This document shows, one piece after another, positions 22,751 to 27,200 of a stretch of DNA of 64,000 nt; position 1 is the first letter of the stretch; every line of letters starts with the position of its first letter. This DNA comes from Pseudoxanthomonas sp. YR558 (GTDB lineage: Bacteria; Pseudomonadota; Gammaproteobacteria; Xanthomonadales; Xanthomonadaceae). The position numbers were made by a program, and so were the translations under genes. Location of the stretch: NCBI RefSeq assembly GCF_900116385.1, contig NZ_FPCI01000002.1:930001-994000 (forward strand), in the 5' to 3' direction. The notes beneath the pieces are model-generated. The model had not been told where the DNA came from. It worked only from the letters and a program-made list of their open reading frames with translations, and made no database searches.

Positions 22751-23380
22751 TCAGGCCAACGGCCGCGGCCACGCGTTCGCGATCGTGCAGAACAGGCGGG
22801 CGGTCTGCTCGGCGTCGTAGACGGCGGAGTGCGCGTCCTCGGCGTTCCAATCGAAACCGGCAGCGGCGACGGCACGCGCAAGCACGGTTTGGCCGTAGGC
22901 CACGCCGGCCAGCGTCACCGTGTCAAACACGCTGAAGGGATGGAACGGGTTGCGCTTGTGGCCGACGCGCGCGACCGCAGCGTTGAGGAAGTTCAGGTCG
23001 AAGTGCGCGTTGTGGCCGACCAGGATCGCGCGCTGGCAGCCGTGCTTCTTGACCGCCGCGCGCACCGGCGCGAACACGTGGTCCAGCGCGTCCTTCTCGT
23101 GCTTGGCGAAGCGGAAGGGGTGGTCGAGGTCGATACCGGTGACTTCGAGCGACTTGGGATCGATCTCCAGGCCGGGCGCCGGATGCAGGTGCACGCTGGA
23201 GGTGGTGCCGGGCACCAGCAGGCCGTTCTCATCCAAGTCGAGCGGGACTGCGGCCAGTTCGAGCAGGGCGTGCCGGTTCCAATCGAAGCCGCCGGTTTCC
23301 ACATCCACCACGACCGGCAGGTAGCCGCGGAAGCGGTGGGCCATGGGTGTGATGCGGGCGGTTTCGGCGGCGTTTTCCAT
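22751..23380 (-). CDS. rnt: Ribonuclease T
   Basis: DEDD 3'-5' exonuclease that trims tRNA and other stable RNA 3' ends and turns over tRNA CCA; 209 aa. [20 protein letters not shown] holds the first Asp-Glu pair, [16 protein letters not shown] the second Asp, and [14 protein letters not shown] the catalytic His and last Asp (DEDDh). Starts at 23380. It follows the MNIO cluster by 76 bp on the same strand. Confidence 0.93.
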
Positions 23381-23456
23381 GCGCGGAAGGGTAGCAGACG
23401 GCGCGGCCGCTTCCCGTGCTGGAACCACAACCGCGCGTGAGTGTTGCCGGTCGCGA

Positions 23457-24209
23457 CTACTGTGGGGCGGGTTCCACACCCACCAGCGTGCCTTCCTCGC
23501 GCATGCGCTGCAGCATGGCGGCACCCTGCTCGATGAAGGCGGGCACGTCATCGACGCCGGCCTCGTCGGCGAGCTGGCGAAGGACGTCGTCCCCGCTGCG
23601 CTCTCGCGTACCCAGGAGTTCGACCAGCCGGTAGACCAGCGGCGAGATCGCGGCGAACCGCACCTGCTGGTCGTCGCCACGCCGCACGAGCAAACATGTG
23701 GGTTCGGCGGGAGGCACGTCGGGCTGGTAGTCGGGACCGACGCGATGCACCGGCCACTGGTACGCCAGCGCCCATGCGAACGGCGACACCACGGGCACGC
23801 CCGCGAGCAGGTCGCCTTCCGGATCATGCGGGGGCACGGTGTCGTCTGCGATCTGCAGTGCCAGCTCCACCCATTCGTAGTGAGCGAGTTCGCGCAACCA
23901 CGACGGATCGCCATCATCCGCGCGGGTTTCGAGGAAGCGGATGAACTCGCGCGCGACCTCGGGGAACAGCGGCGTGTGGCTGCGATGGTTGGCGTAGAAG
24001 TCCCGCACCAGGCGGCGCCAGGCATCATCGCCCAGGGTCTTGCGGATCACCGGGAAATTGCCGGCCAACAGCCCTTCGATGTTGTTGAAGAACAGGTCGC
24101 GATAGACCGCGAGCCGCCGCTCCTCGATGCCGGGCGGCGGCGGGTGCGCGGAGGGGTCCCGCAGATGCCGTGACAGCGCGAACTGTTGGTCGTGCAGGGT
24201 GTCAGCCAT
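23457..24209 (-). CDS. hvfC: DUF2063/HvfC-like partner of the MNIO enzyme
   Basis: 250 aa. Matches the DUF2063 family (annotated 'putative DNA-binding' but now known as the partner that presents the precursor peptide to DUF692 enzymes). The N-terminal helical domain has [20 protein letters not shown] and [20 protein letters not shown], the family core; the C-terminal half ([20 protein letters not shown]) is a winged-helix-like RiPP-recognition region in characterised members. The ATG at 24209 lies inside the end of hvfB (8-bp overlap), so the pair is translationally coupled. Confidence 0.88.
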
Positions 24210-25053
24210 GGGTCGTGCGTGCGCTCGCGCTTGCGTGTGCGACCTGCGCGTGGCGGATGCACTGCACTTCCGCGGCGAGCTCTGCCAGCGGCGGGAAGTT
24301 GAAATCGCGTTCGAGCAGGGTGGGGCGTACGCCATGCTGTTCGTATGCCAGCGACAGCAGCGACCAGACATCGTCCTTCACTGGTGCGCCATGAGTGTCC
24401 ACCTTCAGGTCGTCGGCTTCGTCGTAGTGGCCGGCGATGTGGTACGACGCGATCCGCGCCGACGGCATGCGGGCCAGGAAAGCGCGCGCGTCGTAGCCAT
24501 GGTTGATGGCATTGACGAAGATGTTGTTGACGTCCAGCAACAGGTCGCAGTCGGCTTCGTCGAGCACCGCGCGAACGAAGTCGGCTTCCGCCATCGCCTG
24601 GTAGGGCGCGGCGTAGTAAGAGACGTTCTCGACCGCGATGCGCCGGCCCAGGGCATCTTGTGCCTGGCGGATGCGCGCGGCGACATGGTGCACGGCTTCC
24701 TCGGTGAACGGGATCGGCATCAGGTCGTACAGATGGCCGTCGTCGCTGCAGTAGCTCAAGTGCTCGCTGTAGAGCGATACGCCGTGCTGGTCGAGGAAGC
24801 GACGGGTGCGCGCGAGGAAGGTGTCGTCCAGCGGCGCCATGCCGCCCAGTGACAGCGACAGTCCGTGGCACGTGATCGGATAACGGGCGGACAGTCCGCG
24901 CAATGCTTCGCCGTAACGGCCGCCCACGCCGATCCAGTTGTCGGGTGCGCACTCGAGGAAGTCGAAGCTCCCCGCGGGCGCACTCAGCAGGTCATCGAGC
25001 AGCGCACGGCGCAAGCCAAGGCCTGCAGAGGCGGTGGGCAGGGGTGTGGTCAT
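24202..25053 (-). CDS. hvfB: DUF692 multinuclear non-haem iron oxidative enzyme (MNIO, HvfB/BufB-like)
   Basis: 283-aa TIM-barrel enzyme. Likely iron ligands follow the family pattern: His98 (YSEHLSY), Glu142-Asn143 (VENVSYYA), Asp174 with Asn176-177 ([18 protein letters not shown], His185), His205 and His209 (SYHIAGHY), Asp219/His221 (VDTHGAPV), Glu249. Family knowledge: such enzymes oxidise precursor-peptide cysteines to oxazolone-thioamide or thiooxazole groups that bind copper. It lies between a precursor with EGKCG repeats and a DUF2063 partner. The start at 25053 is preferred over one 12 nt upstream. Confidence 0.93.
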
Positions 25054-25104
25054 GCAGGAGGGCATAGGGTCCCGGCGGAGGCGCCGGGACCCTTTCGCGC
25101 AGGC

Positions 25105-25515
25105 TTACTTGTCGCCGGTCTTCTTGTCGGCGCCGCACTTACCTTCGCCACACTTGCCTTCACCGCACTTGCCCTCGGCACCCTTCGCACCGGCGTGGGC
25201 CTTGTGCTCGGCGGCGTCGATAAAGCCGTCCTTGTTGGTGTCGATGCCGGCGAAGTCGGCCGCCTTGTCCGGATGGGCGGCGGCGAACTCGGCCTGCGAG
25301 ACCTTGCCGTCCTTGTCGGTGTCGGCCTTGGCCATGCCGCACTTGCCCTCGCCGCATTTGCCTTCACCGCACTTGCCTTCGCCGGCTTTCGCGGCTTCGG
25401 GCGCGGCCAGCAGGTAACCCTGTGCGAGCGGCTCCATCGCGAAGCTCGAACCGGCCAGCAGGATGCCGCCCGCCAGCGCGACAGCGACAGCAGCGGGTTT
25501 GGTGGTCTTGGACAT
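25105..25515 (-). CDS. hvfA: EGKCG-repeat precursor peptide with two EF-hands (bufferin/HvfA-like)
   Basis: 136 aa with a Sec signal peptide (cleavage near Ala26, GSSFA). Two blocks of three EGKCG pentapeptides put Cys at 49, 54, 59 and at 117, 122, 127, the only Cys in the protein. Between the blocks are two canonical calcium loops: Asp65-Asp67-Asp69-Gly-Glu76 and Asp92-Asn94-Asp96-Gly-Glu103. EGKCG is the core motif modified by HvfB-type MNIO enzymes. Product predicted: an exported, thioamide-bearing metal-binding protein. ATG at 25515 with GGGAGA upstream; first gene of the cluster. No DoxX-like fourth gene is adjacent. Confidence 0.87.
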   Translation of the reverse strand: MSKTTKPAAVAVALAGGILLAGSSFAMEPLAQGYLLAAPEAAKAGEGKCGEGKCGEGKCGMAKADTDKDGKVSQAEFAAAHPDKAADFAGIDTNKDGFIDAAEHKAHAGAKGAEGKCGEGKCGEGKCGADKKTGDK

Positions 25516-25562
25516 CGTGTTCTCTCCCAGAGCGTGCGGGGGATCCGCACCAGCGTGGCGGG

Positions 25563-25568
25563 ATTGTA
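25563..25568 (-). promoter_or_regulatory. Possible -10 element for the hvfABC cluster
   Basis: TACAAT on the minus strand (25563-25568), about 48 bp before the hvfA ATG. No convincing -35 at 16-18 bp, so an activator or alternative sigma factor may be needed. Confidence 0.35.
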
Positions 25569-25610
25569 GCGGCCGGACGTTAGCGGCCCGTTGGTGCCAG
25601 GCCCTGAACG

Positions 25611-25638
25611 GACAAGCCCCGCCGGAGCGGGGCCTGTC
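25611..25638 (-). terminator. Terminator-like hairpin after phoU
   Basis: 12-bp stem 25611-25622/25627-25638 with one mismatch and a 4-nt loop, just downstream of phoU. It lacks a clear U-run. Confidence 0.5.
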
Positions 25639-25662
25639 GCGTGTTGCGGTGCGGCGCAGGAA

Positions 25663-26373
25663 TCAGACGGCGCCGGTGGTGCTGGTGTCGTCGCGCTTGG
25701 CCCGCGGCGGCAGCGGCTGTTCGCCATGCACCAGGAACCACACGTTCTCGGCGATGTTGGTGGCGTGGTCGCCGATCCGCTCCAGGTTCTTGGCCATGAA
25801 CAGCAGATGCGTGCACGGCGTGATGTTGCGCGGGTCTTCCATCATGTAGGTCAGCAGCTCGCGGAACAGCGCGGTGTAATGCGCGTCCAGCTCGGCATCG
25901 CGCTCGCGCACTTGCACGGCCTGTTCCGCGTCGCCGTTCTGGTACGCGACCAGAACATCGCGCACCTGGCGGGCCGCCAGCTTGCCGAGCGCACGCAGGC
26001 CGGTGATCTGCGGCATCGGCGGCGACACGTTGAGGGCGATGGAGCGCTTGGCGACGTTCGCGGCGTAGTCGCCGATGCGCTCGATGTCGGCCGGGATCCG
26101 CAAGCCGGCGAGGATCTCGCGCAGGTCGCGCGCCATCGGGCCACGCAAGGCCAGGTGCATCACGTCGTGGCTGACCTGGTGCTCGATGGCGTCGATGGCC
26201 TCATCGTTGGCGATGATGCGTTGGGCGGCCTTGTCGTCGCGGCGTTCGACCACGTCCAGCGCGGCCTCCAGCTGGGCGACGGCGGTCTCGCCCATGCGGA
26301 CGATCTCGGCCACCAGGCGGCGCTGTTCTTCGTCGTAGCTCTTCACGATATGGTCGTTGGGTTGTGTGTTCAT
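25663..26373 (-). CDS. phoU: Phosphate signalling protein PhoU
   Basis: Cytoplasmic regulator linking the PstSCAB importer to PhoR kinase; represses the Pho regulon when phosphate is plentiful. 236 aa, two three-helix repeats each with the metal-binding motif: IPADIERIGDYAANVAKR and MAKNLERIGDHATNIAENVW (E/DxxxD type). ATG at 26373; 8 nt after pstB, so cotranscribed. phoB and phoR are not next to it, as they would be in many relatives. Confidence 0.96.
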   Translation of the reverse strand: MNTQPNDHIVKSYDEEQRRLVAEIVRMGETAVAQLEAALDVVERRDDKAAQRIIANDEAIDAIEHQVSHDVMHLALRGPMARDLREILAGLRIPADIERIGDYAANVAKRSIALNVSPPMPQITGLRALGKLAARQVRDVLVAYQNGDAEQAVQVRERDAELDAHYTALFRELLTYMMEDPRNITPCTHLLFMAKNLERIGDHATNIAENVWFLVHGEQPLPPRAKRDDTSTTGAV

Positions 26374-26381
26374 GGGCGTCC

Positions 26382-27200
26382 TCAGCCGAAACGTCCGGTG
26401 ATGTAGTCTTCGGTCTGTTGCTTGCCGGGGTTGGAGAAGATCGTCGACGTGGCGTCGTGTTCGACCAGCTCGCCCAGGTACATGAAGGCCGTGTAGTCGG
26501 ACACGCGCGCGGCCTGCTGCATGTTGTGCGTCACGATCGCGATGGTGTACTGGTGCTTCAGTTCTTCGATCAGCTGTTCGATCTTGCTGGTCGAAATGGG
26601 ATCCAGGGCGGAGGTCGGTTCGTCCAGCAGGATCACGTCCGGGCGCAGGGCGACGGCGCGCGCGATGCACAGCCGCTGCTGCTGGCCACCGGAGAGGCCC
26701 AGCGCGCTCTGCTTCAGCTTGTCCTTGGCTTCTTCCCACAACGCGGCCTGGCGGAGCGCCTGTTCGACGCGCACATCCATGTCCGCCTTGTTCAGGCGCT
26801 CGTGGTGGCGGATGCCGTACGCGACGTTTTCATAGATCGTCATCGGGAACGGCACCGGCTTCTGGAACACCATGCCCACCTTGCTGCGCAGGCGGTTCAT
26901 CGGGTACTTGGGGTCCAGGATGTTCTCGCCATCCAGCAGCACATCGCCAGCGGCACGCAGCTTCGGGTACAGCGAGTAGATGCGGTTGAAGACGCGCAGC
27001 AGGGTGGACTTGCCGCAGCCGGAGGGACCGATCAGCGCGGTGACGCGCTTCTCCGGGATCTCCAGGTTGATGTTCTTCAACGCGTGGAAGTCGCCGTAGT
27101 AGAAATCTAGGCCCTTGGCGGCCAGCTTCACGCTGGCGGGCGCGGCGAGGTCGTCGTGGCGTTGCGGCGTCACCACGGCAATGCGGGCGGCGTCATTCAT
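26382..27200 (-). CDS. pstB: Phosphate ABC transporter ATP-binding protein
   Basis: ATPase of the high-affinity phosphate importer, 272 aa. Walker [13 protein letters not shown]-loop FQKPVPFP, signature [14 protein letters not shown], Walker [15 protein letters not shown]-loop THNMQQA. The N-terminal 25 aa precede the usual core start. It overlaps the pstA end by 8 bp, consistent with translational coupling in the pstCAB-phoU unit. Confidence 0.98.

What the first reader, a model, noticed from the sequence alone, without database searches (positions are those of the whole stretch)
23457..25515. MNIO RiPP cluster whose precursor unites six EGKCG motifs and two EF-hands
The 136-aa exported precursor has two triplets of EGKCG flanking two canonical calcium loops, followed by a DUF692 MNIO enzyme and a DUF2063 partner. 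In HvfA/bufferin-type systems the EGKCG Cys are converted to oxazolone-thioamide groups that bind copper. A precursor with a calcium-responsive module set between two modified blocks would be a distinct architecture: calcium binding could position the two copper-binding arms or act in export-dependent folding. The usual DoxX-like fourth gene is not adjacent.
Basis: partly seen in the sequence, partly recalled or inferred. Interest (0 to 1): 0.85.

Follow-up and report, generated by a model that had tools for sequence, protein, structure and literature searches.

The report
Copper-peptide precursor with calcium-binding core
A bacterium carries a gene for a small exported protein whose two cysteine-rich arms, probably turned into copper-binding groups, flank a calmodulin-like calcium-binding core; fusions of these two parts are already in print, while the two-armed form was not found described in what could be read.

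Summary
Window 25105-25515 (-) encodes a 136-aa precursor with a signal region, three EGKCG, two canonical EF-hand loops and three more EGKCG, followed by an HvfB-family MNIO and an HvfC partner; no DoxX is adjacent. The reading is partly right. This is an HvfABC/captophorin-type metallophore cluster, but the modification is now assigned as 5-thiooxazole, and EGKCG|EF-hand fusions were published in 2025 (PMC12452194: EF-hands at the C-terminus of the EGKCG part). The 'sandwich' form (EGKCG-EF-EF-EGKCG) is not described in the passages I read. It is common in the window's family: 56 of 100 HvfC places fetched, 54 of them beside phoU and/or rnt, a conserved gene site. The published layout mostly sits elsewhere (8 of 9). 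In the 54, the last N-terminal EGKCG lies at one fixed register before EF loop 1 in 48, whereas the C-terminal spacer and motif numbers vary freely. AlphaFold2 folds only the EF pair; the arms are disordered. Most likely function: a periplasmic copper buffer whose calcium-loaded EF pair is a folded hub for two thiooxazole arms. Calcium control of copper is untested. New variant of a known kind.

The parts
25105..25515 (-). hvfA-like precursor, 136 aa: signal region about 1-26 (by eye), conserved MEPLAQGY just after it, EGKCG x3 (residues 46-60), EF-hand pair (61-110), EGKCG x3 (114-128)
24202..25065 (-). hvfB, MNIO enzyme (287 aa; start may be 25053)
   Evidence: PF05114 E=5e-102; NF003818 432.7 bits over cut-off 360; PDB 3bww E=1.2e-70
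23457..24209 (-). hvfC, DUF2063 + C-terminal domain partner protein (250 aa)
   Evidence: PF09836 and PF22106; NF050145 311.7 bits over 142; PDB 3dee E=2.2e-8
25066..25093 (-). 12-bp perfect hairpin between hvfA and hvfB; probable attenuator or 3'-end stabiliser that keeps precursor mRNA above enzyme mRNA (inferred)
   Evidence: stems of 8 bp or more in 31 of 116 distinct stretches of 60 nt after hvfA, 2.4 expected from shuffles
25534..25550 (-). 6-bp hairpin (GTGCGG-ATCCC-CCGCAC) in the presumed 5' leader of hvfA
   Evidence: stems of 5 bp or more in 79 of 114 distinct upstream stretches, 27 expected; a control stretch further upstream was also above shuffles (55 of 115 against 37)
25563..25582 (-). 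promoter-like motif TAAC-N10-TACAAT shared by near relatives; role inferred
   Evidence: pattern set after looking at the alignment; 12 of 116 upstream stretches, 0 in a control stretch further upstream
22751..23380 (-). rnt-like DEDDh exonuclease (RNase_T), conserved downstream neighbour of the site; not thought to be part of the pathway
   Evidence: PF00929 E=8.9e-19; downstream in 27 of 28 sandwich loci
25663..26373 (-). phoU, conserved upstream neighbour of the site (from MNTQPND); named from recall, no family call was run on it
   Evidence: upstream in 25 of 28 sandwich loci

Best explanation
An HvfABC-type (captophorin) RiPP cluster. HvfB with HvfC converts the six EGKCG cysteines to 5-thiooxazoles in the cytosol, with the Sec signal region acting as leader. 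The protein is exported, the signal is removed, and the two thiooxazole arms bind Cu(I). Between them the EF-hand pair binds calcium at periplasmic levels and folds into a calmodulin-lobe-like hub, so that the product is one folded two-armed copper buffer rather than a loose peptide. Shown here: gene content, family membership, conserved layout, purifying selection and a confident EF fold model. Inferred from studied relatives: thiooxazole, copper binding, export. Inferred only: calcium occupancy and its role as a hub.
For: Family models and solved relatives. hvfC follows hvfB in 80 of 80 loci. Sandwich form in 28 of 80 genome-contig loci and in 56 of 100 family places. A conserved site. Position 9 of the loops, which the final search pattern left free, is S or T in 72 of 72 (loop 1) and S, D or T in 72 of 72 (loop 2) distinct cores; pN/pS is 0.26 over the EF core in 19 pairs. 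AF2 block means of 74-88 pLDDT for residues 61-110 and under 50 for residues 1-58 and 111-136. Foldseek probability 1.00 to a polcalcin and calmodulin-type lobes. Thiooxazole and copper binding in relatives: PMC13097082 and PMC13419390 passages.
Against: No experiment on this protein. HvfA equivalog model NF050188 not reached (23.3 against 95 bits). Foldseek E-values are weak (best 0.025, none at or under 0.001), with disordered arms in the model. At the same gene site 29 of 85 relatives have EGKCG-only precursors, so the EF core seems dispensable for the basic task. The first EF-hand has only a 4-residue entering helix in the model, so its calcium affinity may be low.
Confidence: 0.72

Rival explanations
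1. The EF pair is a calcium switch: calcium loading changes copper affinity or release of the thiooxazole next to it (or copper changes calcium binding), because the last N-terminal EGKCG is held in fixed register against EF loop 1.
For: Distance from that EGKCG to loop 1 is 9 in 48 of 54 syntenic sandwiches and needs 6 changes on the HvfB tree, against 20 for the C-terminal spacer and 23 and 22 for the motif numbers. The published layout has its own fixed value, 12, in 25 of 26 and in 8 of 8 non-syntenic family cases.
Against: Fixed spacing may only protect the 4-residue entering helix. The model gives no defined place to the arms (under 50 pLDDT). 6 of 54 have other spacings; in the named set 8 of 29 sandwiches, window included, do.
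Confidence: 0.2
2. The EF pair is only a spacer or solubility and stability domain with no calcium role specific to the pathway.
For: EF presence changes at least 9 times on the HvfB tree at the same site; EGKCG-only forms persist.
Against: Calcium ligand positions are kept in both loops with pN/pS 0.26; a pure spacer would not need them. Part of that ligand count is built into my search pattern (positions 1, 3, 5, 6, 8 and 12 were constrained).
Confidence: 0.25
3. The protein serves calcium signalling or homeostasis and the EGKCG arms are secondary (EfhP-like role, as suggested for EF-hand chimaeras in PMC12452194).
For: Suggestion in print.
Against: EGKCG arms are kept in forms with and without the EF pair, and all of these loci were found through the MNIO or HvfC gene beside them, so precursors without those genes were not sampled.
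Confidence: 0.06
4. The product binds another metal than copper (for example gold, zinc or a lanthanide) as its main ligand.
For: Metal range of thiooxazole products is open (PMC13097082 passage); weak lanmodulin model match of 25 bits.
Against: The lanmodulin match is far below its cut-off of 135 bits. The loops have mostly T or A at position 2, not the proline recalled for lanmodulin; L092 and L156 do have a proline there in loop 2.
Confidence: 0.12

Closest known systems
[quoted passage not shown]
   Same: Signal region, EGKCG motifs, two EF-hand_5 domains, MNIO and DUF2063 partner
   Different: Published type: EF-hands at the C-terminal end of the EGKCG part. Here a second EGKCG block follows the EF-hands. 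Loci that I class as the published layout mostly lie elsewhere in the genome (phoU and rnt neighbours in 1 of 26), with register 12 instead of 9
Oxazolin HvfABC of Haemophilus (PMC13419390)
   Same: HvfB/HvfC pair, six EGKCG-type Cys, Sec signal region acting like a leader
   Different: No EF-hands described; DoxX-like HvfX in the operon
Fontiphorin FonABC (PMC13097082)
   Same: EGKCG repeats, MNIO with DUF2063 partner; captophorin class
   Different: The word EF-hand does not occur in its main text; seven thiooxazoles
Bufferins Buf1 (DUF2282) and Buf2
   Same: MNIO and partner, exported precursor, copper protection
   Different: Other precursor families; no DUF2282 match here; bufferin maturase model not reached (267.7 against 310 bits)

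Membership tests
HvfA/Buf_EGKCG metallophore precursors | Repeated EGKCG motifs over the curated domain cut-off | tested here: met
   NF050137 37 bits against 19.5
HvfA equivalog (NF050188) | Whole-protein model score of 95 bits or more | tested here: not met
   23.3 bits; so it is an HvfA-family relative, not an HvfA ortholog by this model
HvfABC / captophorin gene cluster | MNIO of the HvfB type next to the precursor | tested here: met
   NF003818 432.7 against 360 bits; gap to precursor 39 nt with the 25065 start
HvfABC / captophorin gene cluster | DUF2063-RRE partner (HvfC) | tested here: met
   NF050145 311.7 against 142 bits
HvfABC / captophorin gene cluster | DoxX-like gene (frequent, not universal) | tested here: not met
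   Three DoxX genes in the genome, none near
HvfABC / captophorin gene cluster | 5-thiooxazole on Cys and Cu binding | not testable with these tools
   Needs mass spectrometry and metal titration
[quoted passage not shown]
   PF13202 two stretches, E=9.2e-9
[quoted passage not shown]
   Three EGKCG follow the EF pair
Bufferin 1 (DUF2282) | DUF2282 precursor and BufB enzyme model | tested here: not met
   No DUF2282 match up to E=0.1; BufB 267.7 against 310 bits
Lanmodulin | Equivalog score of 135 bits or more | tested here: not met
   25 bits
Calmodulin-like EF-hand pair | Paired EF-hand fold with 12-residue loops | tested here: met
   AF2 core 61-110; Foldseek to polcalcin and calmodulin lobes, probability 1.00 but E 0.025 at best
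Calmodulin-like EF-hand pair | Calcium binding | not testable with these tools
   Needs titration

The most novel reading that the evidence does not exclude
A calcium-gated copper peptide: the EF pair and the thiooxazole that abuts it in fixed register form one bimetallic unit, so that calcium met on export folds the hub, locks the two arms into a copper site and makes copper capture depend on leaving the cytosol.
Probability: 0.15. Interest if true: 0.8.

Novelty: new variant of a known kind. Interest (0 to 1): 0.45.

Why it matters
RiPP metallophores are usually pictured as loose modified peptides. A form with a folded calcium-binding core between two modified arms, kept at one gene site in much of a bacterial family and gained or lost several times, gives a natural test of what the EF-hands do: related species differ in that core at the same locus. 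If calcium matters, it would join two metals in one ribosomal natural product and offer a simple answer to how an exported RiPP avoids acting before export.

Tried and rejected
Tried and set aside. (1) 'Categorically new': rejected, because EF-hand fusions are in print. (2) That the sandwich and the published layout are one lineage: not supported; they differ in gene site and register. One non-syntenic place, L168, shows the published register (12) with a C-terminal EGKCG block, so a sandwich may have arisen there apart. Whether the EF pairs of the two layouts share an origin was not tested. (3) That the sandwich is one clade of HvfB: not so, 9 changes on the tree. (4) A link between EF-hands and the sigma gene: 20 of 29 EGKCG-only and 19 of 56 EF-bearing syntenic rows have the sigma gene, but on the tree there are 4 supported independent pairs (9 on all branches), median p 1. 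(5) Lanmodulin and XopAW matches: far below cut-offs. (6) Rfam over 23000-26500: no match at gathering thresholds. (7) DoxX in relatives: not settled; of my three DoxX queries only one looks like a proper DoxX frame, and it matched no locus. (8) A measure of arm-to-arm distance in the model: coordinates are not in the box (file list).

Limits and dropped rows. The 100 family places were picked by hand from the list, mostly from its top; the list itself was cut and lower places were not fetched. Every locus was found through its MNIO or HvfC gene. The two sets overlap in species. L020 and L140 gave no precursor (contig ends); L028 and L035 are cut at contig ends and L105 holds N, yet are counted as EGKCG-only. 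One search missed two EF-hand precursors (L087, L151); one search corrects this. L011 was left out of alignment A1 (27 of 28 fetched sandwiches plus the window). In some searches start codons were placed by rule, loci without a fitting start were dropped, and at least L010, L125, L138 and L173 look wrong. The hairpin and promoter tests were set up after looking at the sequences. output was cut in the middle. All trees were of the 'quick' kind.

Full report
What is there. The three genes lie head to tail on the minus strand. hvfA (25105-25515) encodes 136 aa: a signal region, the conserved stretch MEPLAQGY, three EGKCG, two EF-hand loops and three more EGKCG. Pfam finds two EF-hands and NCBIfam the HvfA-type KCG repeat. 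hvfB (24202-25065) passes the HvfB-family model and not the bufferin maturase model; its best match among solved structures is 3bww. hvfC (23457-24209) passes the HvfC model and matches 3dee. The genome (3.79 Mb, 4 contigs) gives one match each for the KCG repeat and the MNIO family. The nearest named HvfB found is 93% identical, from Pseudoxanthomonas sp. Root630, so the window is probably from that genus. Three DoxX genes lie elsewhere.

What is already known. PMC12452194 (passages read; [quoted passage not shown] It suggests copper, and possibly calcium, roles. PMC13097082 (passages) and PMC13419390 (passages and section 23) assign the Cys product of such enzymes as 5-thiooxazole, with copper binding; in the latter, HvfA without its signal sequence is modified far less. 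Searches for papers joining these enzymes with EF-hands or calcium (lists capped) gave PMC12452194 as the only paper that I saw to treat both, and none of the passages I read describes a second EGKCG block after the EF-hands. Papers outside the held library were not searched.

Three architectures. Among 80 MNIO loci from genome contigs, 28 are sandwiches like the window's, 26 have EF-hands after the last EGKCG (the published layout), 25 have no EF-hand and one lacks a precursor at a contig end. hvfC follows hvfB in all 80. In the window's family, 155 of 197 genomes have an HvfC match. Of 100 places fetched, 56 are sandwiches, 33 EGKCG-only, 9 of the published layout, one has EF-hands and only a C-terminal EGKCG block, and one lacks a precursor.

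One gene site. In the first set the exonuclease gene rnt lies downstream, within the stretch held, in 27 of 28 sandwiches, 23 of 25 EGKCG-only and 1 of 26 of the published layout; phoU lies upstream in 25 of 28, 13 of 25 and 1 of 26. The one exception, L027, has the sandwich's register of 9 and looks like a sandwich that lost its C-terminal arm. In the family set 85 of 99 classified places have at least one of the two neighbours: 54 sandwiches, 29 EGKCG-only, 1 published layout, 1 EF-then-EGKCG; of the 14 others, 8 have the published layout, 4 are EGKCG-only and 2 sandwiches. Some genomes hold both kinds, for example G033 with L135 and L175. On the HvfB tree of the 85 rows the presence of EF-hands needs at least 9 changes, 4 of them forced by well-supported branches. 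The EF core has therefore probably come and gone within one gene at one site; the count cannot tell gain from loss.

Fixed register. From the E of the last N-terminal EGKCG to the first Asp of loop 1 the distance is 9 in 48 of 54 syntenic sandwiches; loop-to-loop distance is 27 in 46 of 54. On the same tree these need 6 and 5 changes, while the spacer from loop 2 to the next EGKCG has 11 values and needs 20, and the numbers of N- and C-terminal motifs need 23 and 22. In the first set, window included, the value is 9 in 21 of 29. The published layout has its own fixed value of 12 (25 of 26; 8 of 8 non-syntenic family cases). At register 9 only four residues separate the last modified motif from the first calcium ligand. 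This may reflect a shared Ca/Cu unit, or only protection of a very short entering helix; the data do not decide.

Selection and fold. Over 19 near pairs pN/pS is 0.26 in the EF core, 0.24 in the N-terminal part and 0.19 in the C-terminal part. In 72 distinct cores position 9 of both loops, which the final pattern left free, is always S, T or D, and position 12 is always E although D was allowed; position 1 was demanded by the pattern and is not evidence. AlphaFold2 on 28 aligned sandwiches gives an EF pair at residues 61-110 with block means of 74-88 pLDDT and disordered arms; mean pLDDT of the whole is 55.5. Foldseek ranks a polcalcin and calmodulin-type lobes first, with probability 1.00 but E-values of 0.025 and above.

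Expression features. A gene like an ECF sigma factor lies in the fetched stretch of 6 of 28 and 19 of 56 sandwiches, 19 of 25 and 21 of 33 EGKCG-only loci, and 0 of 26 and 0 of 9 of the published layout (first set, then family set). Two examples were confirmed by Pfam, and in these it lies between phoU and hvfA. The window lacks it, and its genome has only matches of 34% identity or less. A strong hairpin lies between hvfA and hvfB in the window; stems of 8 bp or more occur in 31 of 116 distinct stretches against 2.4 expected. A smaller hairpin lies upstream of hvfA; stems of 5 bp or more occur in 79 of 114 against 27 expected, though a control stretch further upstream was also above shuffles (55 of 115 against 37).

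Most likely mechanism. By analogy with HvfBC the six Cys are made into thiooxazoles in the cytosol, the product is exported, and the arms bind copper. The EF pair, exposed to calcium outside the cytosol, folds and holds the arms. The first half rests on studied relatives, the second on conservation and a model. EGKCG-only relatives at the same site suggest that the EF core is an addition, not a need.

Verdict. Observation confirmed; interpretation partly supported; a common and orderly variant of a published kind of precursor, not found described in what I could read. A specialist would find the sandwich, its fixed register and its repeated gain or loss at one site worth testing, but not a surprise of the first rank.

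Noticed in passing
L007:1812-2372 (+), L016:1919-2434 (+): An ECF-type sigma factor gene between phoU and hvfA in these two; a similar gene is in the stretch of 40 of 89 family sandwich and EGKCG-only loci. The window lacks it and its genome has no close match. A possible regulator of hvfABC.
   Followed up: partly
window 25066-25093: Strong hairpin between precursor and enzyme genes, recurring with changed but still paired sequence in near relatives (L089, L094).
   Followed up: partly
window 25534-25550: Short hairpin in the presumed 5' leader of hvfA; about the same place in many relatives holds stems of other sequence.
   Followed up: partly
window 25414-25437: MEPLAQGY just behind the signal region: a hydrophobic-x-x-Gly-Tyr motif lies before the first EGKCG in all 84 sandwiches of the first classification (window included) and in 165 of 179 precursors (several of the 14 misses are cut at contig ends, but six of the published layout, all Stenotrophomonas or near, really lack it). 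A candidate recognition element for HvfBC.
   Followed up: partly
L044:4638-5051, L060:4650-5069, L061:4651-5070; L041:4669-5247, L052:4630-5265: Of eight loci of the published layout scanned, three are followed by OsmC and two by a ferric-reductase-like protein; three gave no family.
   Followed up: no
L168:1-4711: A non-syntenic precursor with register 12 (published layout) that also has a C-terminal EGKCG block: perhaps an independent sandwich.
   Followed up: no
L013:1871-2396: A second EF-hand precursor with fewer and partly altered EGKCG motifs lies just upstream of the main one in Pseudoxanthomonas sp. isolate BIN6: tandem precursors.
   Followed up: no
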